Assembly: GCA_002686955.1 (NCBI GenBank)
Contig: NYZA01000149.1
Span: 1-28,319 of the forward strand
Length of the DNA stretch: 28,319 nucleotides
Direction of reading: 5' to 3'
From: Gemmatimonadota bacterium
GTDB lineage: Bacteria; GCA-2686955
Positions 3,391 through 28,319 of this stretch are shown one piece after another (position 1 is the stretch's first letter; each line of letters opens with the position of its first letter). A program made the position numbers and the translations under genes. The notes beneath the pieces are model-generated. The model was not told the origin of the DNA, did no database searches, and saw nothing but the letters and a program-made list of their open reading frames with translations.

Positions 3391-4650
3391 CTATCGAGCC
3401 GCCGCTCCCATATTTGCCGGCCTGGCGCCGTGCACCGCCTCCGCGAGCTCGACGAAAGCCCGCGACACCGGCGCCTCGGGTCGCGCCAGCACGATCGGCT
3501 CCCCGGCATCGGCCTGTTCGCCCACGGCAGGATCGAGAGGGATCCGCCCGAGAAAGGGCACGCCGACGGCCTCGGCCTCGCGCTCCGCTCCGCCCTCGCC
3601 GAAAATCGGTGTCGCTTCCCCGCAATCGTCGCAAACGAAAGTGCTCATGTTCTCGACCAGCCCAACGATCGGAACATCGATCTTCTCGAACATGCGAATG
3701 CACCGGCGCACATCGGCAAGCGCCACTTTTTGCGGCGTGCTCACCACGACCGCGCCCCAGACCCGCGTGATCTGGGCCAGGCTGAGCTGCACATCTCCCG
3801 TTCCAGGCGGCAGATCGACCACGAGATAGTCGAGCTCGCCCCAGTCGACATCGAGAAGGAACTGGCGCAGCGCCCCCATCAGCATCGGACCGCGCCACAC
3901 CACCGCCTCGCCCGGATCGACTAGAAAGCCCATCGACATCAGCTTCATGCCGAGCTTGGCCACCGGCTCGATCTTCTTCTCCGATGTCGCCGCCGGCTTC
4001 TCTCGGTGGCCGGCCATGATCGCGAGGCTCGGTCCGTAGATGTCGGCATCCAGCAGCCCGACTCGCCGGCCCTGGCCGCTCAACGCCGCCGCGAGATTCA
4101 ACGCAACGCTTGACTTTCCCACTCCCCCCTTTCCGCTGGCGACCGCCACCAAACGCCCGATTCCGCGTAGCGGCGCCTGCGACTCGAAGGGGTCGGGTGC
4201 CGCCGGGCGCGCGGGCTGTCCAGCGCCCTCTCGGGACCCGCCCTCCCCCCTTGCGGCCGGAGGCGTCAGCGGCCGATGGCCCGCCGCCGGCCCCGCCGCC
4301 TGATCGCGCGGCGGCTGGTTCATCAGGATGATTCCGGCCGACTCCACCCCCGGCACCTGCTCGACCCTCTCCTTGATCATCCCCCCCAGCTTCTTCCGCA
4401 CTTCGGGATCGGGATTGGAGATCGAGAGGGTGATCGTCGCCTGCCCCTCGCGCACCCGCACGCCGGTCACCAGACCCAGCGCCATCACATCGGCCTCGAG
4501 CCCCGGCGCCTTCGTGCTTCGTAGCGCCTCGGTGATCGCCCCCTGGAGCGAGGGGGGCCGGGGCTCGGCACCCGCCATCTCACCGCGACTCGCCGGCATC
4601 GGCGGAGCCGAAGGCTTGCGCTTCTTTCGCCATTTTTCGAAAAGGCCCAT
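3391..4650 (-). CDS. mrp: Mrp/NBP35-family iron-sulfur cluster carrier ATPase
   Basis: A P-loop ATPase of the Mrp/ApbC family, which carries and transfers Fe-S clusters. The 419-residue product has a basic N-terminus (MGLFEKWRKKRK). A MIP18/DUF59-type domain follows at about residues 35-115, then a Pro/Ala/Gly-rich linker. The deviant Walker A ATPase core has GKGGVGKSS, LLDADIYGPS and VVDLPPGTGDVQL. A C-terminal CxxC (FVCDDC) is the expected cluster-binding pair. The frame stays open upstream to 4758, but ATG 4650 is preceded by GGAGA (4656-4660) at a 5-nt spacing and the Met-Gly-Leu start also occurs in the duplicated copy at 5722, so I choose it. The first 42 codons plus the RBS are duplicated about 1.07 kb upstream, around a toxin-antitoxin pair. 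Confidence 0.95.
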   Translation of the reverse strand: MGLFEKWRKKRKPSAPPMPASRGEMAGAEPRPPSLQGAITEALRSTKAPGLEADVMALGLVTGVRVREGQATITLSISNPDPEVRKKLGGMIKERVEQVPGVESAGIILMNQPPRDQAAGPAAGHRPLTPPAARGEGGSREGAGQPARPAAPDPFESQAPLRGIGRLVAVASGKGGVGKSSVALNLAAALSGQGRRVGLLDADIYGPSLAIMAGHREKPAATSEKKIEPVAKLGMKLMSMGFLVDPGEAVVWRGPMLMGALRQFLLDVDWGELDYLVVDLPPGTGDVQLSLAQITRVWGAVVVSTPQKVALADVRRCIRMFEKIDVPIVGLVENMSTFVCDDCGEATPIFGEGGAEREAEAVGVPFLGRIPLDPAVGEQADAGEPIVLARPEAPVSRAFVELAEAVHGARPANMGAAAR

Positions 4651-4660
4651 GCGTGTCTCC
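4524..4660 (+). repeat. 137-bp direct repeat, copy within intact mrp 5' end
   Basis: This segment covers the RBS, start codon and first 42 codons of the intact mrp gene (read on the minus strand). It matches 5596-5732 in the same orientation at 136 of 137 positions; the only difference is G at 4595 against A at 5667. Identity ends sharply at both edges. The offset is 1072 bp. Confidence 0.97.
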
Positions 4661-4712
4661 GATCTGTCGTGTCGCCCCAACTCCTGCCGCCAAATTCCGC
4701 AATCGCAGGTGT

Positions 4713-4728
4713 AGCGGCGCGCGCCGCT
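4713..4728. repeat. 16-bp perfect GC palindrome downstream of the HEPN gene
   Basis: AGCGGCGC followed directly by its reverse complement GCGCCGCT. It lies in the 141-bp gap between the HEPN stop and the mrp start. There is no T-run on either side, so it is not a classical intrinsic terminator. It could weaken read-through from the toxin-antitoxin pair into mrp, but that is a guess. Confidence 0.4.
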
Positions 4729-4791
4729 GTTGAGTAGTCGCTGGTAGGATGGTCGCAACCGGTGCCCCGCTTCGGCTCACGGCCTCGAGTC

Positions 4792-5193
4792 TTAGATCGC
4801 CCCAAGGCGCTCACCGACCCACTGGATCGTACCAGCGGCGAGGCGGAGCGCCTTCGCGTACTCCTCCCTGGTGACCGGCTCGGCCAGCGTGGGGTAGCGC
4901 GTGTGGACGGCGTACTCCGACAGGTCGCCCAGGTCGCCGAGCTCGCCTGGAACCGACTCGCCGAGCTTGACCAGCAGACCCAGCAAGGTGTCGATGTCAT
5001 GGGTGCGAGGGAAGCTCTGCTCCAGGGCGATGAGCAGCGCCTTCAGGGCCTTTTCGACGGCCTGCTGTGCCTCGAAGCAGAGATCCTCGTACAGAGCATC
5101 TTCGGCGCCGGCTCCGGCGATGGCCAGATTGCTTCGGGCACGGAGCATCCACGCGGCGGGAGTGGTCGGATCGCGAGGATCATCCTGCGTCAT
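4792..5193 (-). CDS. HEPN domain protein (HepT-like toxin of an MNT-HEPN pair)
   Basis: 133-residue, mostly helical protein of the HEPN family (PF05168 type). These proteins pair with MNT nucleotidyltransferases as toxin-antitoxin modules in which the HEPN member is usually the RNase toxin. Visible family features are ARSNLAIA near the start, CFEAQQAVEKALKALLIA (the HEPN core helix), THDIDTLLGLL, and YAVHTRYPT near the end. I do not see an unambiguous Rx4-6H ribonuclease motif, so the toxic activity is uncertain. ATG 5193 overlaps the MNT stop (5180-5182) by 14 bp, which implies translational coupling; the longer open frame to 5367 runs through the MNT gene and was rejected. Its TAA is 141 bp from the mrp start. 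Confidence 0.88.
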   Translation of the reverse strand: MTQDDPRDPTTPAAWMLRARSNLAIAGAGAEDALYEDLCFEAQQAVEKALKALLIALEQSFPRTHDIDTLLGLLVKLGESVPGELGDLGDLSEYAVHTRYPTLAEPVTREEYAKALRLAAGTIQWVGERLGAI

Positions 5194-5518
5194 GCACGAC
5201 TCTCCCTTCTTCGAGGGCGGCGCGATACACCAGAAACGGGGAGTCTCCGTAGTGCTCCACGTCTTCGGGATGTACGACCAGGATGTCGATCGGGTAGAAC
5301 CGGAGCCCGAGGGACTTGCGAATCTCTCGCGCCAAATGACGACGATGGACGCCGCGCTTGATGACAAGGAAGTCCAAATCGCTGTCCGGAGTCATTTCGC
5401 CGCGCGCCGCAGATCCGAAGAGAATGAGCTTCTCGGGCTCCGCGAGGCGCACGATCGCGGCCACGATCTTCTCCAGTTCGACTTCATCGATCTCGTTGGC
5501 GGCTCGTTCGCGACTCAT
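5180..5518 (-). CDS. MNT-family nucleotidyltransferase (MntA-like antitoxin)
   Basis: 112-residue minimal nucleotidyltransferase with the polymerase-beta signature GSAARGEMTPDSDLDFLVI (GSxARG followed by SDxDxL), which supplies the metal-binding Asp pair. In characterised MNT-HEPN modules the MNT protein neutralises the HEPN toxin, in some cases by adding AMP to it. ATG 5518 is chosen over GTG 5527 because AGGAGG (5527-5532) lies 8 nt upstream of the ATG; the GTG would overlap the Shine-Dalgarno. The gene precedes and overlaps the HEPN gene. It starts only 12 bp after the end of the small chimeric ORF built from the duplicated mrp 5' end, so translation initiated at the copied mrp RBS may feed into this pair. 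Confidence 0.9.
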   Translation of the reverse strand: MSRERAANEIDEVELEKIVAAIVRLAEPEKLILFGSAARGEMTPDSDLDFLVIKRGVHRRHLAREIRKSLGLRFYPIDILVVHPEDVEHYGDSPFLVYRAALEEGRVVHDAG

Positions 5519-5526
5519 GGCCAACA

Positions 5527-5532
5527 CCTCCT
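5527..5532 (-). promoter_or_regulatory. Shine-Dalgarno AGGAGG of the MNT gene
   Basis: Perfect AGGAGG on the minus strand, 8 nt before ATG 5518. It decides the start against GTG 5527. It overlaps the stop codon region of the preceding chimeric mini-ORF (5531-5722). Confidence 0.75.
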
Positions 5533-5722
5533 AAACGGGAGAGTACAGAGCGGTCTTGCTCATGCGCAAGTCTACGCACTCCTTCAGAGAGGGCCGCGCC
5601 TCGGTGATCGCCCCCTGGAGCGAGGGGGGCCGGGGCTCGGCACCCGCCATCTCACCGCGACTCGCCAGCATCGGCGGAGCCGAAGGCTTGCGCTTCTTTC
5701 GCCATTTTTCGAAAAGGCCCAT
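5531..5722 (-). pseudogene. mrp 5' fragment fused to unrelated tail (63-codon chimeric ORF)
   Basis: The first 42 codons match mrp codons 1-42 with one Pro-to-Leu change, and the mrp Shine-Dalgarno (GGAGA, 5728-5732) is retained. At 5595 the similarity to mrp stops and the frame continues into about 21 unrelated codons (RPSLKECVDLRMSKTALYSPV) before a stop at 5531-5533. It cannot form an Mrp ATPase because nearly all of the MIP18 domain and the whole P-loop domain are missing. It is probably the by-product of the duplication that accompanied insertion of the MNT-HEPN pair. Because it keeps the mrp initiation region and ends 12 bp before the MNT start, it may act as a translated leader for the toxin-antitoxin genes. 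Confidence 0.85.
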
Positions 5723-5732
5723 GCGTGTCTCC
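5596..5732 (+). repeat. 137-bp direct repeat, copy flanking the MNT-HEPN pair
   Basis: Second copy of the mrp 5' segment, in the same orientation as the copy at 4524-4660. The single substitution changes a Pro codon of mrp to Leu (PMPASR becomes PMLASR). Together the two copies bracket 935 bp holding the MNT and HEPN genes, so homologous recombination between them would delete 1072 bp and leave one intact mrp. Confidence 0.97.
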
Positions 5733-5767: not shown

Positions 5768-6208
5768 CTAGAACTCGTCCAAGGCCCCCCGGGCGCCGCT
5801 CTCTTCGGCCCATTCGCCGAGCGGGAAGGGCGGCAACGCATACTCCGTGGGTTGGATGCGCAGGGTGTTGTCGTAGGAGCAAGCCGCCAAAGCCTCCGGC
5901 TCCGATGGCGATTCCAACCCGACCACAAGAATCAAATGCGCCGGCAAGGCCACAAGCGCCAAATCCCCGTCAACCGCCAGCGCCGCCGCATCGACGACAC
6001 CGCCCAAACGCCCCAGCTCTATCGGCTCCCCCTCCGCCCCCGATCCGAGCACGATCAGATCGGCGTCGCTCGCGATCAGGTCGAAATCGGGCGTCGAGAC
6101 GAGGAGCGCGATTCCCTCGGAGCCCAGCAGGACCGAGGCGGCCAGCCAACCGGCTCCCGCGATCGCCGAAGCCCTCTGGATCGCATCTCTCGAATCAAAG
6201 AACCGCAT
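5768..6208 (-). CDS. hypothetical protein
   Basis: 146 residues, function not recognised. It starts MRFFDSRDAIQRASAIAG and contains several short hydrophobic stretches (WLAASVLLG, ALLVS, ADLIVLGSG, LALVALPAHLILVVGLE), suggesting a compact alpha/beta fold rather than true membrane helices. It ends with an acidic tail. ATG 6208 is preceded by GGAGG (6215-6219) at 6 nt, a strong Shine-Dalgarno, and is preferred over the longer frame to 6280. The gene lies upstream of the duplicated mrp fragment on the same strand. Before the 1072-bp unit was added, only about 45 bp would have separated it from the mrp start, so it may have been the first gene of the mrp-ftsY operon. A small regulatory fold such as roadblock/LC7 is conceivable but unsupported. 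Confidence 0.6.
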   Translation of the reverse strand: MRFFDSRDAIQRASAIAGAGWLAASVLLGSEGIALLVSTPDFDLIASDADLIVLGSGAEGEPIELGRLGGVVDAAALAVDGDLALVALPAHLILVVGLESPSEPEALAACSYDNTLRIQPTEYALPPFPLGEWAEESGARGALDEF

Positions 6209-22291: not shown

Positions 22292-25200
22292 CTACGAGCG
22301 CGCGGTCCGAGCAAGAGCATCCGCGATCGTCGCCCGTACCTTGCCGGTGTCATCGATCAACCTGAACTGCCATTGCCCATGCCGCCCATCGAGATTGACC
22401 GCGCGAATCCAGCGCTTCGCCGCCTGCACCTTGATCTCTTTCAAGCGATCGAATCCCTTGGGCTCGAGGATCAGGTAGCGCTCCTCATCGGTTTCCAGAC
22501 GAATGATGAAATCGGGGATGTAATCGTGCGAGTGACCGTCGTGCAGGTAGGGGATGGCGAATCCGAGACCGGCGTTCTTGACGAAGGAGCGCACTCCGTC
22601 GTGGCGGTCGACCTGATAGGCGACGGATTGCTCCCATTTCTTCGTGTCGGGTACCACCGCGTTCACATGGCTCCTGACGACGGGATAAGGCTCATTCCTG
22701 GTTCGGAAGTCCACGTCGGCTGTGGAGCCAGGTCCACGGTTCGCCTCGTATCGCGGCAGCTCCGCGCTCTCTCCACGTCTTTCGTCCGGATGAATCGCCT
22801 CTACGAGTCGCTCGATCATCCAACCATAGTAGGGAGACAAGAAGACATCGATCGTCTCCGACGGCGCCACCGGCACGACCTTCTCGCGCAGATAACGCCG
22901 GACGATTCGGGCGATCTGAGGAAAGAGCACATGGGCCGGTGCTTCGCAGCCACCCTGCCGGAGATAGCTGCGGGTGAGATCACGAGACAGCTTGAAGATG
23001 AGCTCTTGGAGCCGGTTGGCTCGCCGGAAGGGTTGCAGATCTACCTGCCGGAGCTTGCCTGGTCCGAGCAGGGACGGCCTGCCCTCATTGCTGGGTAGTC
23101 CCGCTTTGAGCTCCACTTCCGGAGGAATGTCCGTGGGATCGAGCCGCAGCTCGGCGATCTCATTCCAATCGATGGCGATGCGACTCCGCACGGCCTGGCT
23201 GTACCCCTCCACCCGCGGGAAGCGAATCTCGTGCTCCACACTCTCGGGCAGGGCGTGGACATGCCAGGTCGTCGGCGGCGGCTTGGTCCCTCCCCCCGGG
23301 TTCTCCTTGAAGGGAATGATCTCGAAGGGCACGCCGAAGACAGTCGCGATCTCTTCCGTCAGCAGATCGTCATCGCCGATCTCATAGCTGGCTCGCCGCA
23401 GGCCACGGCCGACCACCTGCTCGCAGAGCAACTGTGACATGAACGGTCTAAGCCCGATGATATGGGTCACGGTATTGCAGTCCCAGCCCTCGGTCAGCAT
23501 GCCGACGCTGACGATGCAGCGCACATCTCGTCCCGGTGGGTGCAAAGGGCGCTCCAGCTTCTTCGCCAACTCCGGGAAACCGGCGGGGTAGAGCGCTTGC
23601 CCCCGTTGATCGCGCGGCCACTCCAGCCGACCGACTGTATCCAGGGTCAGACGCATCCAATCCGACGCATCCGACTTGGCTTCGCCGGAATCGGTCTCGT
23701 GCACGACTCGTGAGTCGACCCGAATGGTGTTCAGTCGATCGTCACTATTCAGCAAGCTCGGCATCTGAGCCGGAGGGATTCCCACGGGTGGCCGATCCTC
23801 TGCCAGCCACTCGAAAACGATCTTCGCCAAGCGCGTGTTCCTGCAAACGATAATGAAGACGGGATTTCGCTCTTCAGCCGCATTGTGCTCCCAGGCGGCG
23901 CGAAGTTCCTCCCACAACCCGGCCATCATGGCGATCGGTACATTGGCGTGCTTGAGCACGGCCTCCGGTTTGGCCATCTGCTTGCGGCCGCCACGCTCTA
24001 CCGTGGTCAGCTTGGGCATGATCCAGCGCCAGATATTGAAGTAGCCGGGAATCGAAGCGCCGGTTGAATCTCGCACGGCCAGCTGCGGGATCTTGGTAAG
24101 CCCCGATTCGATTGCATCCACGAGGCCGAACTCGCTGACCACCCAAGGGAATACTCGATTGGTATCTTGCCCGACCCGCCCCAGGTAGTAGGGAGTTGCC
24201 GAGAAGTCGATACAGATATTGACGCCGCGCAGCTTGTGGATGCGATCCAGGCCATCCACCCAAACCGTCGCCTCTTTGAAGAACTCCTCCACTTCCTCCT
24301 CGTCCCCGAGCGCTTCCCCCTCATCTTCGTCCGCATCACTTCGACGAATACGATAGGCGTGGTGGGCCTCGTCGTTCATCACCAAGATGTTTCGCTTGCC
24401 GCCTACCTCACGGCCGAGCAGGCGATCCACGACCGCCGTATCGCTCTCGATGTAGCGTAGCGATTCCACTTCCACCTTGACCAAGGCGTTCCTCTTCGAA
24501 TCACGATGCTCCTTCAGAATCTCGATCAGCCCGCCATTCACCTGCCGGTGCAGGGCATCTTTCGTGAGGTAGCGATGGCCCCGTTTGGTTTCGCTCTTGC
24601 TACCGATCCGCACGGTCTCGCGCACGCGCAGCGGGCGACCGCAGCGATTCACTTTGGCCGATACACCGCCGGTCTGCACTCCTCGAGGCTCGAAGCGATG
24701 CCAGTTGCTGATCAGCACACGGCCCTGGTTGAGCTGAGGCATCAGATGCGGGGGGACGAGATCGCGGGTTCGGTAGAGACTCGCCTCCCCGCGGGAGGGG
24801 TCGAGCTCTCCCAGACGGCTGCGGATCGTGACGTTGGGGCAAACCACGAGCACCACGTCCGAGAAACGCGAGTCGGCGCGGCTCCCGACCTTGTTCAGGA
24901 TGCTCCAAGCCGCAAGCATGCCCATGACGGTGGTCTTGCCCGAGCCGGTCGCCATCTTGCACGCGTAGCGCCGAAAAGCACGGTACCCCTCGGCCTTGCG
25001 CTCGGCGCTCGGTTCGTCGAATGGCACATCGATGCCGTGCAGGAAGTCAACGCGCGCTTCGGTGAGAAAGATGATGCTCTCGACCGCCTCGAGCTGGGCG
25101 TAAAAAAGACACTGAAAGCGCCCCTCTCGCCGCCAGTGGTTCAGCAACTCCATGGTGGTGCGCGTGACGCCGCCTTCGCCCCGCAAGGCAAGAGGACGCC

Positions 25201-25426
25201 ATTCGCCCAACGCCTTGCGGATGCGATTCACCAGCTTCAGCTCGATCGAGATTCCCACCCCTGCTTCGCCTTCCGGCGTCGAGGTGCCGGGCTTGCGGTA
25301 GAAGTAGCTCGCCGGGCGTCGGCCCTGCTTGCGCACCGGCGGCTCCAGGGCCGCTATCTCCCAGTACTCCTTGGGTTCCTCGAAAGGAGGATTCAGGATC
25401 GGCTCGGGGACTTCATGCTGGTTCAT
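22292..25426 (-). CDS. type III-like restriction endonuclease subunit (DEAH helicase-nuclease)
   Basis: 1044 residues. SF2 helicase motifs are MATGSGKTT (Walker A, near 155), VVCPN, MNDEAHHAYR (DEAH, near 350), DFSATPYYLG (near 405), VGMLTEGWD and EQVVGRGLRRASY (motif VI, near 668). A C-terminal PD-(D/E)xK nuclease is visible: PDFIIRLETDEERYLILEPKGF near residue 970-990. This layout is that of Res subunits of type III-like systems; it strongly resembles the family NCBI calls BPTD_3080 restriction endonucleases. It would cut DNA lacking the cognate methylation, using ATP to translocate. ATG 25426 overlaps the end of the AAA gene by 14 bp, so the methyltransferase, AAA protein and nuclease form one operon. 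No frameshift or missing motif is seen, so the system looks active. Confidence 0.93.
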   Translation of the reverse strand: MNQHEVPEPILNPPFEEPKEYWEIAALEPPVRKQGRRPASYFYRKPGTSTPEGEAGVGISIELKLVNRIRKALGEWRPLALRGEGGVTRTTMELLNHWRREGRFQCLFYAQLEAVESIIFLTEARVDFLHGIDVPFDEPSAERKAEGYRAFRRYACKMATGSGKTTVMGMLAAWSILNKVGSRADSRFSDVVLVVCPNVTIRSRLGELDPSRGEASLYRTRDLVPPHLMPQLNQGRVLISNWHRFEPRGVQTGGVSAKVNRCGRPLRVRETVRIGSKSETKRGHRYLTKDALHRQVNGGLIEILKEHRDSKRNALVKVEVESLRYIESDTAVVDRLLGREVGGKRNILVMNDEAHHAYRIRRSDADEDEGEALGDEEEVEEFFKEATVWVDGLDRIHKLRGVNICIDFSATPYYLGRVGQDTNRVFPWVVSEFGLVDAIESGLTKIPQLAVRDSTGASIPGYFNIWRWIMPKLTTVERGGRKQMAKPEAVLKHANVPIAMMAGLWEELRAAWEHNAAEERNPVFIIVCRNTRLAKIVFEWLAEDRPPVGIPPAQMPSLLNSDDRLNTIRVDSRVVHETDSGEAKSDASDWMRLTLDTVGRLEWPRDQRGQALYPAGFPELAKKLERPLHPPGRDVRCIVSVGMLTEGWDCNTVTHIIGLRPFMSQLLCEQVVGRGLRRASYEIGDDDLLTEEIATVFGVPFEIIPFKENPGGGTKPPPTTWHVHALPESVEHEIRFPRVEGYSQAVRSRIAIDWNEIAELRLDPTDIPPEVELKAGLPSNEGRPSLLGPGKLRQVDLQPFRRANRLQELIFKLSRDLTRSYLRQGGCEAPAHVLFPQIARIVRRYLREKVVPVAPSETIDVFLSPYYGWMIERLVEAIHPDERRGESAELPRYEANRGPGSTADVDFRTRNEPYPVVRSHVNAVVPDTKKWEQSVAYQVDRHDGVRSFVKNAGLGFAIPYLHDGHSHDYIPDFIIRLETDEERYLILEPKGFDRLKEIKVQAAKRWIRAVNLDGRHGQWQFRLIDDTGKVRATIADALARTARS

Positions 25427-27077
25427 CGGGGTCGATTCCGAATGCTCGGCAGATCGCGTCCAGCTTCTCCGTGACCTCGGGGTGGATCTCTTCGGGGATC
25501 ATCAGCGCCGCGATCTCGTTGTAGCGCGTATACGGGAAACCGTGCAGTCCAGCGGCGTTCAATGCCGGTGGCAACAGTCGGGTCCTGGCCTTGGTCGTGT
25601 TCAGATACTCGTGCTCTCCCAAAGGGTCCTTCAGAACCGCGGGGGGATACTCGTTCTCGAAATGGGCATGGAGATCTTCGATGTGTTGCTCAGCCAGAGA
25701 TCGGCCGACCTGGTGCTCGACGAAGCGGGCCAGAGCCGCGGGATGAACGAGGTAGCTCTCAATCTCGTATCGCCGCCAGCGCAAGCGCTGAAATCCTCTA
25801 CCGGTGATCTCGCTCGATAGAATGCTCGGATTCGCATCCCCGTCGACCAGCTCCAGCCCTGGAATGCCTTCCTGGGCCATCGTCAATGCCTTGTAGTGAT
25901 CGCGCCCTTGGATGCCCGCGGCTCCCTCTCGCGGCTGTACGACGGTTCGCTTCCACATCAGCTCTTTGGTCAAGAGCGGCAAGGCACGATGGTCCAGTCG
26001 GTCCGCCCAGGCGCGCAGGATACTGATGTCGGTGTGGTCCTCCGTGTACAAGATCCCCCTGGCGCTCCCGGCCTGCATGAGGTCGGTGTTGCTCAAGACC
26101 CGCAACGATCTGATCAACTGCCTGCGCTCATCGCTGTCCGCCAGAATCCTCGGCTCGTTGAGCAGCACGCACAGCTCTCGCGGATCTACCGTATCGATGA
26201 CCACCTCGGAATGGGTCGCCAGGATGAGCTGCGACTCGTGGTGGGCGGCAAGCTTGCGAAGCTCGCCGTAGATGGCGTCTTGCAGGATCACGTGCAAGTG
26301 GGCGTCCGGCTCGTCGAGCAGCAAGACCGAGCCCGCGCGCGTGTTCAGGAGTGTCAAGAGCATCAACACCTGCTGAAAGCCGCTGCCCGCGCTGGCGATG
26401 TCCAGTGCTCTTCCTCCCTTTTCCTGCCGGTATTCGGCGATGATGTCCGCACGGGATGAATCGGGTGGCAGAAGCTCATAGCCGAATAGCCGCTCGATGG
26501 AGTCCAGCAGGGCCTCCCACGCCTCTTGGTTCCGATTGGCTTCGAGCAGAAGATTGCGCAACACTTCGCCGGGTCGTCCCGAACCCATGAGCTGCTCGAT
26601 CTTGGCGGTCTGGAGCACCGGCTCATCGGGGGCGAGGCCGGTCATCGGGGGGACGAAGACGGCGCCCAAGACATCTTGGCTCAGCAGCTCCGCCGAAACA
26701 TCGCTTCTGGGGCGCACATAGATCTGCTCCGTGGAGTCTGGGATGAGCTCCATGCAGATACATCCGCCATCGCTCCGGCGCACCTCGATCTCGATCGGCC
26801 GCTTTTTGTAGTTGCGTCGATGCCAGAGCAGATCGAAATTCCGCAGCGGCACCGTGGAGAAGGCCTGGCGCGCGATGGGCACCTTCGTGTAGCCCCTGCG
26901 CTTGTTGTAGTCGTTCAGCTTCTTCCAATGGGTCAAGGCCAGGTTCCAGGAGGCAAGGGCCTGCAACAGAGTGGTCTTGCCGGTGTTGTTCGGCCCGGCC
27001 AGCACCACATGTCCCGGGATATCGAAAGCGACCTCCTCGAAACGCTTGAACCGCCGCAGGATCACTTTGCGGATCAT
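25413..27077 (-). CDS. OLD/PARIS-like AAA ATPase with TOPRIM-like C-terminal domain
   Basis: 554 residues. The RecF/SMC-like ABC ATPase part has VILRRFKRFEEVAFDI, Walker A GPNNTGKTT (28-36), the signature-like SAGSGFQQVLML (near 235) and Walker B SVLLLDEPDAHLH (near 255), followed by LILATHSEVVIDTV. The C-terminal part starts at ILYTEDHTDISILRAWA (near 342). It has a conserved Glu, an Asp pair in LELVDGDAN (near 410) and WRRYEIESYLVHP (near 436), a pattern like the TOPRIM/DUF4435-type nucleases of OLD and PARIS defence proteins. ATG 27077 lies in the methyltransferase stop (ATGA), and the stop overlaps the nuclease gene by 14 bp. The frame runs on to 27968, but only as a shadow of the methyltransferase. 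Its role in the restriction system is unknown. Confidence 0.88.
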   Translation of the reverse strand: MIRKVILRRFKRFEEVAFDIPGHVVLAGPNNTGKTTLLQALASWNLALTHWKKLNDYNKRRGYTKVPIARQAFSTVPLRNFDLLWHRRNYKKRPIEIEVRRSDGGCICMELIPDSTEQIYVRPRSDVSAELLSQDVLGAVFVPPMTGLAPDEPVLQTAKIEQLMGSGRPGEVLRNLLLEANRNQEAWEALLDSIERLFGYELLPPDSSRADIIAEYRQEKGGRALDIASAGSGFQQVLMLLTLLNTRAGSVLLLDEPDAHLHVILQDAIYGELRKLAAHHESQLILATHSEVVIDTVDPRELCVLLNEPRILADSDERRQLIRSLRVLSNTDLMQAGSARGILYTEDHTDISILRAWADRLDHRALPLLTKELMWKRTVVQPREGAAGIQGRDHYKALTMAQEGIPGLELVDGDANPSILSSEITGRGFQRLRWRRYEIESYLVHPAALARFVEHQVGRSLAEQHIEDLHAHFENEYPPAVLKDPLGEHEYLNTTKARTRLLPPALNAAGLHGFPYTRYNEIAALMIPEEIHPEVTEKLDAICRAFGIDPDEPA

Positions 27078-28319
27078 CTTTCCACCTCCTCCACGGCCTC
27101 CTCCATCGCCAGCTCCAGCATCAGCTCGTTGCCCCGATCGTCGAGCACCTTGATCGCGACGCGACCGTGGTCTCCAGGCGCGAAGGGTGCGCTGAGAGTG
27201 CCGGAGAGGTGCTCCCAAACCGAGTCCTCGAACTCCGTCTTCAGCGCACGCTTCAGAGCGCTCCAGGCCGAGGTGCGGGGGAAGAAAGCCTGACGTACGT
27301 GAAAGACCATGCCGTCGTAGTCGGTGTCGAGCAGCCAGGCCGGCACGTCGTCGCCTCGGCGATGGTCGGTGGTCACGTTGGCGGGATCGAATACATCCAG
27401 TCCCAGCAGCTCGACCTGATAGAGCCCCTCGGCATCGGCCTCCGTCGACCGGAAGAGGCGTGCTTCGGGCAGACCGCAGACCGAGAAGATCTGCGATGAA
27501 CGCATATTCTTCAGCAAGTCTCCCATCATCAGATCGGGGGTGGCCTGCACATAGGTGGCGGCGATCCCGATGGCCGGCTCGCATTGCTCGATGAGTTGGC
27601 GGGCTTTCGATTCGATGGCGAAGCCGATGGCATAAAGGTGGGTGTAGCTCTTGGCGACCGCTTCGCGCGCGGCCTCGTAGATCAGCTTCTCCGATACGGC
27701 GCCGTTCTCGGGACCGAAGACAATCGCGATAGGGGTCGGGTCCTCTTCCGCCGAGCGAGACTCGGTGCATGAGGAGCCGATCTCCGCTTCTGCGGACAGC
27801 GACAATGTGCGCGCAGGCAGACGGATATTGCGCAGCTCGATGGTGTCTCCGCCCCCCAAATGCAACACTGGGGAGCGTCGCAGCACCTCGAGCATGCGTT
27901 CGGCGAAGCCGGCGTGCTTCTCCGACGTCTCGGCCACACCGCTGTCTTCCTCGCCATCCCCCTCCCAATCCACCGGTGTCGGTATGGTCGCTTCGACACA
28001 GAATGGGCCGGTGACACGGGTGATCGACCGATCCGCCTCCGGGCGATCGACCAGCACCTCCTCTTTCGGCGGCTCGTCATTGGCGATGGAGCTCGATGTC
28101 GTATGGCTCGCGATGCCACCGACCTCTTCGCCCTTCTTGTTCTGCTTGCGTTTGTAGACGAAGCCCCCGGCGGGGCCGCGGGAGGGCTCTTTCAATTGAT
28201 GGAAGGGGAAGGTCGCGGTCAAGAGGCGTTGGCGGGCCAGGGCGAGGGGGACGCGGGAAGTGTCGCAGGTGATCCAGCGGCGGGCCCATTGCTCGGCGAC
28301 GTAAGCGCTGGTGCCGGAG
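27074..28319 (-). CDS. site-specific DNA methyltransferase of type III-like system, 5' end outside window
   Basis: The frame is open to the window edge; about 414 C-terminal residues are visible. The first are SGTSAYVAEQWARRWITCDT, the AdoMet-binding FxGxG region (SGT) followed by the acidic residue of motif II. Because this lies in the C-terminal half, the DPPY-type motif must be upstream, as in beta-class N6-adenine or N4-cytosine enzymes of the Mod type. Then come RVPLALARQRLLTATFPFHQL, a basic linker with KRKQNKKGE, DRSITRVTGPFCVEA, and a C-terminal domain with WLLDTDYDGMVFHVRQAFFP and GRVAIKVLDDRGNEL. I recognise these as typical of methyltransferases paired with BPTD_3080-type nucleases. 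It would modify host sites and protect them from the helicase-nuclease. Its TGA overlaps the AAA gene start (ATGA). Confidence 0.9.
   Translation of the reverse strand, partial: SGTSAYVAEQWARRWITCDTSRVPLALARQRLLTATFPFHQLKEPSRGPAGGFVYKRKQNKKGEEVGGIASHTTSSSIANDEPPKEEVLVDRPEADRSITRVTGPFCVEATIPTPVDWEGDGEEDSGVAETSEKHAGFAERMLEVLRRSPVLHLGGGDTIELRNIRLPARTLSLSAEAEIGSSCTESRSAEEDPTPIAIVFGPENGAVSEKLIYEAAREAVAKSYTHLYAIGFAIESKARQLIEQCEPAIGIAATYVQATPDLMMGDLLKNMRSSQIFSVCGLPEARLFRSTEADAEGLYQVELLGLDVFDPANVTTDHRRGDDVPAWLLDTDYDGMVFHVRQAFFPRTSAWSALKRALKTEFEDSVWEHLSGTLSAPFAPGDHGRVAIKVLDDRGNELMLELAMEEAVEEVER

What the first reader, a model, noticed from the sequence alone, without database searches (positions are those of the whole stretch)
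4524..5732. MNT-HEPN toxin-antitoxin pair bracketed by a 137-bp duplication of the mrp 5' end
Positions 4524-4660 and 5596-5732 match at 136 of 137 bases in direct orientation, and identity stops abruptly at both ends. The repeat is the RBS, start codon and first 42 codons of mrp. Between the copies lie only the MNT and HEPN genes. The simplest reading is that a 1072-bp unit carrying the toxin-antitoxin pair entered in front of mrp and duplicated the gene start, keeping mrp intact. The near identity implies a recent event. The direct repeat would allow RecA-mediated loss that restores a single mrp, which the addiction module would oppose. No transposase, terminal inverted repeat or short target duplication is visible, so the insertion route is unclear.
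Basis: partly seen in the sequence, partly recalled or inferred. Interest (0 to 1): 0.75.

Follow-up and report, generated by a model that had tools for sequence, protein, structure and literature searches.

The report
Two-gene cassette with duplicated gene start
A small two-gene module, of a kind suspected to be a toxin and its antidote, sits in front of the mrp gene between two near-identical 137-base copies of the start of mrp, and about a third of its relatives in distant bacteria are bracketed in the same way, which points to a way such modules enter chromosomes without a transposase.

Summary
Positions 4524-4660 and 5596-5732 match at 136/137 bases. The repeat is the ribosome-binding site, start and first 42 codons of mrp; MNT and HEPN lie between. 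No transposase or terminal inverted repeat is present. No relative shows the empty site: only one other genome of this phylum is held, and its contig ends at mrp codon 48.

The bracket is recurrent. Of 93 usable HEPN loci from about 60 diverse genomes, 29 carry a direct repeat (E<=1e-5) around the pair, against 2-3 with inverted repeats, 9 of 166 positions shifted inside the same loci, 0 of 47 ordinary-gene loci and 9 of 66 VapC-like loci. In 11 loci the repeat is the end of an intact neighbour gene (UbiD, GlyRS, sulfatase, HsdR, histidine kinase and others). Repeats from different loci are unrelated, so they come from the target.

Best reading: insertion of a bare MNT-HEPN unit with long target duplication, a mode described for restriction-modification systems and not found described for HEPN-MNT in the papers searched. 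The physical mechanism is inferred. The pair is 'Class II' (PF05168/PF01909), lacks the RX4HXY RNase motif and is not a proven toxin-antitoxin. New variant of a known kind.

The parts
4524..4660 (-). inner copy of the 137-bp direct repeat: RBS, start codon and codons 1-42 of the intact mrp
5596..5732 (-). outer copy of the repeat: truncated mrp start, 42 codons, next to the hypothetical gene that probably was the native upstream neighbour
4661..5595 (-). 935-bp insert between the two copies (one repeat unit = 1072 bp)
5180..5518 (-). MNT, minimal nucleotidyltransferase, 112 aa, with GSX10DXD motif (GSAARGEMTPDSDLD)
   Evidence: PF01909 6e-12; motif
4792..5193 (-). HEPN protein, 133 aa, PF05168 (Class II) type, without RX4HXY; overlaps MNT by 14 nt
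   Evidence: PF05168 2e-25; motif and conservation
5531..5722 (-). 63-codon open frame made of mrp codons 1-42 plus 21 codons of the insert; its stop overlaps the MNT Shine-Dalgarno sequence
4663..4724 (.). 62-bp sequence abutting the duplication, 87% identical to C158:2194-2255, where it marks the point at which a gene is broken off
3391..4650 (-). mrp, Fe-S carrier P-loop ATPase, 419 aa, intact
   Evidence: PF10609 2.5e-98, PF01883 8e-8
5768..6208 (-). hypothetical gene upstream, 146 aa, no family; its stop lies 45 nt from the start codon of the outer mrp copy

Best explanation
A bare two-gene MNT-HEPN unit (about 935 bp with its flanks) inserted at the start of mrp, and about 137-141 bp of the target, from the mrp leader to codon 42, was duplicated so that one copy lies on each side. 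mrp stayed intact because the duplicated stretch spans its start; the outer copy was left as a stub that reads on for 21 codons and stops on the MNT Shine-Dalgarno sequence, so MNT and HEPN are probably translated by coupling from the old mrp start and mrp from its new copy behind them. This is one case of a recurrent mode of entry for MNT-HEPN pairs: insertion with long, variable target duplication that spares a neighbour gene because the duplication covers that gene's start or end. Shown: the repeat, its origin in mrp, the open frames, and the recurrence with unrelated targets. Inferred: the direction (insertion rather than loss), the coupling, and the physical route, most likely repair of an offset double break or a template switch that copied the target twice around a captured DNA fragment.
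For: Repeat, gene order and frames. Recurrence: 29 of 93 HEPN loci with direct repeats at E<=1e-5 around the pair against 3 with inverted repeats; with 1.0- or 1.4-kb flanks 28-29 direct against 1-2 inverted, 9/166 shifted positions in the same loci, 0/47 ordinary-gene loci, 9/66 PIN loci; Fisher p = 1.4e-6 against ordinary genes and 1.3e-7 against shifted positions. In 11 loci from 9 genomes the repeat translates as the end of an intact neighbour gene, with the stop or the start region in both copies (gene families). Repeats of different loci share no sequence, so they are not ends of the element. In one 27-species genus the unit is present in 10 and absent in 6 of the sampled loci at one site; empty gap between the two genes 2-5 nt, occupied typically about 700 nt. 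Four relatives lack a pair within 1.5 kb downstream of glyS where L149 has one with a glyS 3'-end duplicate. Published precedents for mobility of MNT-HEPN units: PMC2701414.
Against: No empty site is available for this locus: the only other genome of the phylum has a contig that ends at mrp codon 48. Most MNT-HEPN loci in the survey (about two thirds) show no repeat, and the within-genus case with the clearest empty sites shows no long duplication of the target; there the repeat seen in L114 comes from MNT itself. About ten of the 29 brackets are intergenic, MNT-derived or otherwise not clearly gene ends. No microhomology or enzyme identifies the route.
Confidence: 0.75

Rival explanations
1. 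Single crossover (Campbell type) of a circular or circularised DNA that already carried the mrp start joined to MNT-HEPN, from another strain or locus, into the mrp start. The repeat is then homology used for entry, not a duplication made at entry.
For: Gives the same A - pair - A structure; circles of this unit would form by recombination between the repeats and could re-enter any strain with a free mrp start. Fits 99% identity.
Against: Needs a donor in which the pair already lay next to the mrp start, so it explains spread within a species, not the first event. Unrelated repeats at every locus would each need such a donor.
Confidence: 0.12
2. Tandem duplication of a segment holding the mrp start and MNT-HEPN, followed by loss of the second MNT-HEPN copy.
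For: Tandem modules and MNT-derived leftovers occur: L114, L161 and L170 carry repeats made of MNT sequence, L140 has three HEPN genes.
Against: Requires a deletion that restores exactly the original upstream junction of mrp. In the window no MNT or HEPN leftover is found next to the outer copy.
Confidence: 0.07
3. Assembly artefact: a free 1072-bp circle or a strain variant was unrolled into the contig.
For: Draft genome in 270 contigs, no reads at hand; the repeat is about as long as a short read.
Against: The copies differ at 4595/5667 and 4661/5733. The same architecture, with copies 2-30% diverged, recurs in other genomes, several on contigs of 100-900 kb.
Confidence: 0.04

Closest known systems
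Insertion with long target duplication (Nobusato et al. 2000; Furuta et al. 2010), reviewed in PMC3874152 and PMC3031569
   Same: Small addiction-type unit inserted without transposase, bracketed by long, variable (order of 100 bp) direct copies of the target
   Different: Described for restriction-modification genes, mainly Helicobacter pylori, from strain comparison; here the cargo is MNT-HEPN, in many phyla, and strain-level empty sites were not available. The primary papers were not held, so details are taken from the reviews.
Class II HEPN/MNT pairs (PF05168/PF01909), PMC7641770
   Same: Domain families, gene order MNT then HEPN, GSX10DXD in MNT, no RX4HXY in HEPN, conserved tyrosine (Y100, RYP)
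   Different: No activity tested here; Class II had not been validated as toxin-antitoxin in that paper
Mobile MNT-HEPN modules (Makarova et al. 2009, PMC2701414)
   Same: Occupied and empty sites between close relatives (Deinococcus; Thermus thermophilus HB8 and HB27)
   Different: That paper does not mention direct repeats (no occurrence of the term)
Site-specific integrative elements that restore the gene end they enter
   Same: Gene end duplicated and target gene kept intact
   Different: No integrase in the unit, repeats differ at every locus

Membership tests
insertion with long target duplication | direct repeat of the order of 100 bp, variable in length, at both sides of the unit | tested here: met
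   137 bp here; 32-486 bp in the survey
insertion with long target duplication | repeat is target sequence, not an end of the element | tested here: met
   repeat is the mrp start; no similarity between repeats of different loci
insertion with long target duplication | empty site with a single copy in a close relative | tested here: inconclusive
   one relative held, contig ends at mrp codon 48; neighbour-level absence only for L149
insertion with long target duplication | no transposase or terminal inverted repeats needed | tested here: met
type VII toxin-antitoxin, Class I HepT/MntA | RX4HXY motif in HEPN | tested here: not met
   absent in the window HEPN; 1 of 93 in the survey
type VII toxin-antitoxin, Class I HepT/MntA | GSX10DXD motif in MNT | tested here: met
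   GSAARGEMTPDSDLD; 79 of 81 in the survey have GSx(9-11)DxD
type VII toxin-antitoxin, Class I HepT/MntA | NCBIfam MntA antitoxin cut-off (60 bits) | tested here: not met
   29.6 bits
Class II HEPN/MNT | PF05168 HEPN next to PF01909 MNT | tested here: met
Class II HEPN/MNT | toxicity and neutralisation | not testable with these tools
   needs an experiment
insertion sequence or transposon | transposase and terminal inverted repeats | tested here: not met

The most novel reading that the evidence does not exclude
Small toxin-antitoxin-like modules (MNT-HEPN most, VapBC less) spread in chromosomes as bare two-gene units by a transposase-free insertion route that copies tens to hundreds of bases of the target, and they persist where the copied stretch covers a gene end so that the neighbour survives; the modules may even promote the event themselves.
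Probability: 0.35. Interest if true: 0.8.

Novelty: new variant of a known kind. Interest (0 to 1): 0.62.

Why it matters
How solitary toxin-antitoxin modules, which carry no transposase, move between chromosomes is an old question. A footprint present at about a third of MNT-HEPN pairs, made from the end of whatever gene lies next to them, gives that question a concrete object: the junctions can be read, dated by the divergence of the copies, compared between strains and reproduced in the laboratory. It also warns annotators that gene-end stubs beside such modules are insertion scars rather than genes.

Tried and rejected
Empty site of this locus: only one other genome in the phylum, contig ends at mrp codon 48; close relatives of this mrp were not found in genome contigs (best 51% over a segment). 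Rfam: nothing meaningful at the locus or at the 62-bp repeat. The 62-bp repeat does not fold better than shuffles and is not found in G001 or 58 other genomes at a convincing E-value. Plasmids: no match to the window HEPN or the L114 HEPN, two at 33% to the L118 HEPN, so no plasmid-borne empty/occupied pairs. Congener test with L114: the repeat proved to be MNT-derived, so it is no target duplication, but it gave clear occupied and empty sites. Family of G049 holds a single genome. Excluded from the gene-end class: L161 and L170 (MNT-derived), L109 and L160 (distant or paralogous repeats), L116, L118, L121, L131, L137, L156, L180, L197 (not gene ends by my criterion). Literature searches for direct repeats or target duplications at HEPN-MNT or vapBC loci returned nothing on the point.

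Full report
The feature. On the minus strand the order is: hypothetical gene (6208-5768), truncated mrp start (5732-5596), MNT (5518-5180), HEPN (5193-4792), intact mrp (4650-3391). The two mrp starts, 4524-4660 and 5596-5732, agree at 136 of 137 bases and the match stops at both ends. The longest exact run, 71 bases, is far above the 18 seen in random windows of the same composition. The one difference inside the repeat changes Pro19 (inner, intact gene) to Leu19 (outer copy). The outer copy reads on for 21 codons into the insert and stops on TAG within TAGGAGGTGTTGGCC-ATG, the Shine-Dalgarno region of MNT. I infer that MNT is translated by coupling from the old mrp start.

What the two genes are. 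MNT matches PF01909 and carries GSX10DXD; HEPN matches PF05168. This is the pair that PMC7641770 calls Class II: MNT keeps GSX10DXD, HEPN lacks RX4HXY, a conserved tyrosine remains. In 93 HEPN relatives collected here, Q44, E47, K51, R99 and Y100 are nearly invariant and RX4HXY occurs once. The authors of that paper say Class II still has to be validated as a toxin-antitoxin. Nearest solved HEPN structures are 1ufb and 1o3u. 'Toxin-antitoxin' is therefore a family expectation, not a result.

Genome context. The window is contig C149 of a 4.28-Mb draft in 270 contigs. Only one other genome of the phylum is held; its mrp is 60% identical and its contig ends at codon 48. The hypothetical gene stops 45 nt before the outer mrp start, which fits a former hyp-mrp operon, but this is inference.

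Is it a one-off? I searched 290 diverse genomes with the window HEPN, took 97 loci with about 3 kb on each side where the contig allowed and compared the flanks of each pair with each other. Of 93 usable loci, 29 have a direct repeat at E<=1e-5, most of them hugging the pair, against 3 with inverted repeats. With 1.0- or 1.4-kb flanks the counts are 28-29 direct and 1-2 inverted. Controls with the same test: 9 of 166 positions shifted by 1.7 kb in the same loci, 0 of 47 loci of ordinary genes (shorter loci), and 9 of 66 loci of PIN-domain (VapC-like) genes from the same genomes. Fisher tests: 1.4e-6 against ordinary genes, 1.3e-7 against shifted positions, 0.014 against PIN; PIN against ordinary genes 0.0099. 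Loci from one genome are not independent, and the 29 loci come from 24 genomes, so these p-values are somewhat optimistic.

Where do the repeats come from? In 11 loci from 9 genomes I could read both copies in the frame of an intact neighbour gene: histidine kinase 3' end (L110), UbiD 3' end (L152; the other copy is frameshifted), aminoacyl-tRNA synthetase 3' end (L149; GlyRS by my reading), sulfatase 3' end with its stop (L155), pectate-lyase-like 3' end with its stop (L174), NOV_C gene near its 3' end (L130), an 815-codon ORF 3' end (L139), HsdR 5' end (L141), helicase/restriction 5' end (L144), two further 5' ends (L140, L167). An automatic criterion puts 19 of the 29 in the gene-end class, of which I regard several as doubtful. 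Repeats of different loci show no similarity to each other. So the repeats are target sequence, and the neighbour stays intact because the copied stretch spans its start or its stop. A duplication wholly inside a gene would break it, so selection explains why gene ends are seen. Identity runs from 70 to 98%; the window, at 99%, is the highest.

Occupied and empty sites. In a genus of 27 species (probably Thermus, my inference from gene content and size) the sampled site between a glycerate-kinase-like gene (my reading) and hemW-like gene is empty in six loci, with 2-5 nt between the genes, and holds MNT with HEPN or remnants in ten. This shows gain or loss of the bare two-gene unit at one site, but without a long target duplication; the repeat in L114 is MNT sequence, best read as the leftover of an earlier or tandem module. 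In the family of G158, four relatives have no pair in the 1.5 kb behind the synthetase gene where L149 has one with a 62-bp duplicate of the gene's end. The duplicate keeps an Asp that relatives share and that the intact copy has lost, as expected of a true copy of that gene.

Mechanism. [quoted passage not shown] Reviews describe it for restriction-modification units: insertion unlinked to any mobile element, with long and variable target duplications of the order of 100 bp (PMC3874152; PMC3031569; PMC1643837). The primary papers are not held. The route is unknown there and here; I favour repair of an offset double break, or a template switch that returns upstream of where it left, around a captured fragment. 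A single crossover with a circle that already carries the target start would give the same product and could serve for spread within a species.

Next to the inner copy lies a 62-bp sequence that recurs once in the genome, at C158:2194-2255, exactly where a gene related to a longer gene in G001 loses similarity. It thus marks a breakpoint twice. Since its two copies are 87% identical while the mrp copies are 99% identical, it was probably part of the unit before insertion. I found no fold or family for it.

Limits. Draft genomes dominate the survey; the sample was chosen by similarity to one HEPN; the ordinary-gene control is small and its loci shorter; no reads, no strain pairs, no experiment. 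The claim that holds without them is that the bracket in the window is real, is made of the mrp start, and is an instance of a pattern found far more often at MNT-HEPN pairs than at control positions.

Noticed in passing
L114, L277-L296 (one genus of 27 species): MNT-HEPN is present or absent exactly between two adjacent genes; when present, the downstream gene starts with ATG right behind HEPN, when absent with another start codon 2-5 nt behind the upstream stop.
   Followed up: partly
L257 1505-1839 / 2656-2990; L265 1546-1661 / 2692-2807; L238; L225: VapC-like (PIN) genes are also bracketed by direct repeats in 9 of 66 loci, some 98% identical over 116-335 bp; the mode may be general to small addiction-type modules.
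   Followed up: partly
window 4663-4724 and L004 2194-2255 (G000 contig C158): A 62-bp sequence sits at a breakpoint in both places, 87% identical; nature unknown.
   Followed up: partly
L140, L141, L167: In these 5'-end duplications homology begins a few codons after the start codon, and each copy has a start codon of its own, so the insert may supply the new start of the target gene.
   Followed up: no
window 4637-4648, 5709-5720 and 5046-5057: A 12-nt stretch of the mrp start (TCGAAAAGGCCC) is exactly complementary to a stretch inside the HEPN gene.
   Followed up: no
window 22292-28222, minus strand: Neighbouring large genes with ResIII (1044 aa) and AAA_21/AAA_15 OLD-like ATPase domains, possibly a defence locus.
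   Followed up: no
L137, L156, L180, L116, L118: Long direct repeats around MNT-HEPN that lie between genes, some with several copies; they may be dispersed repeats rather than target duplications.
   Followed up: no
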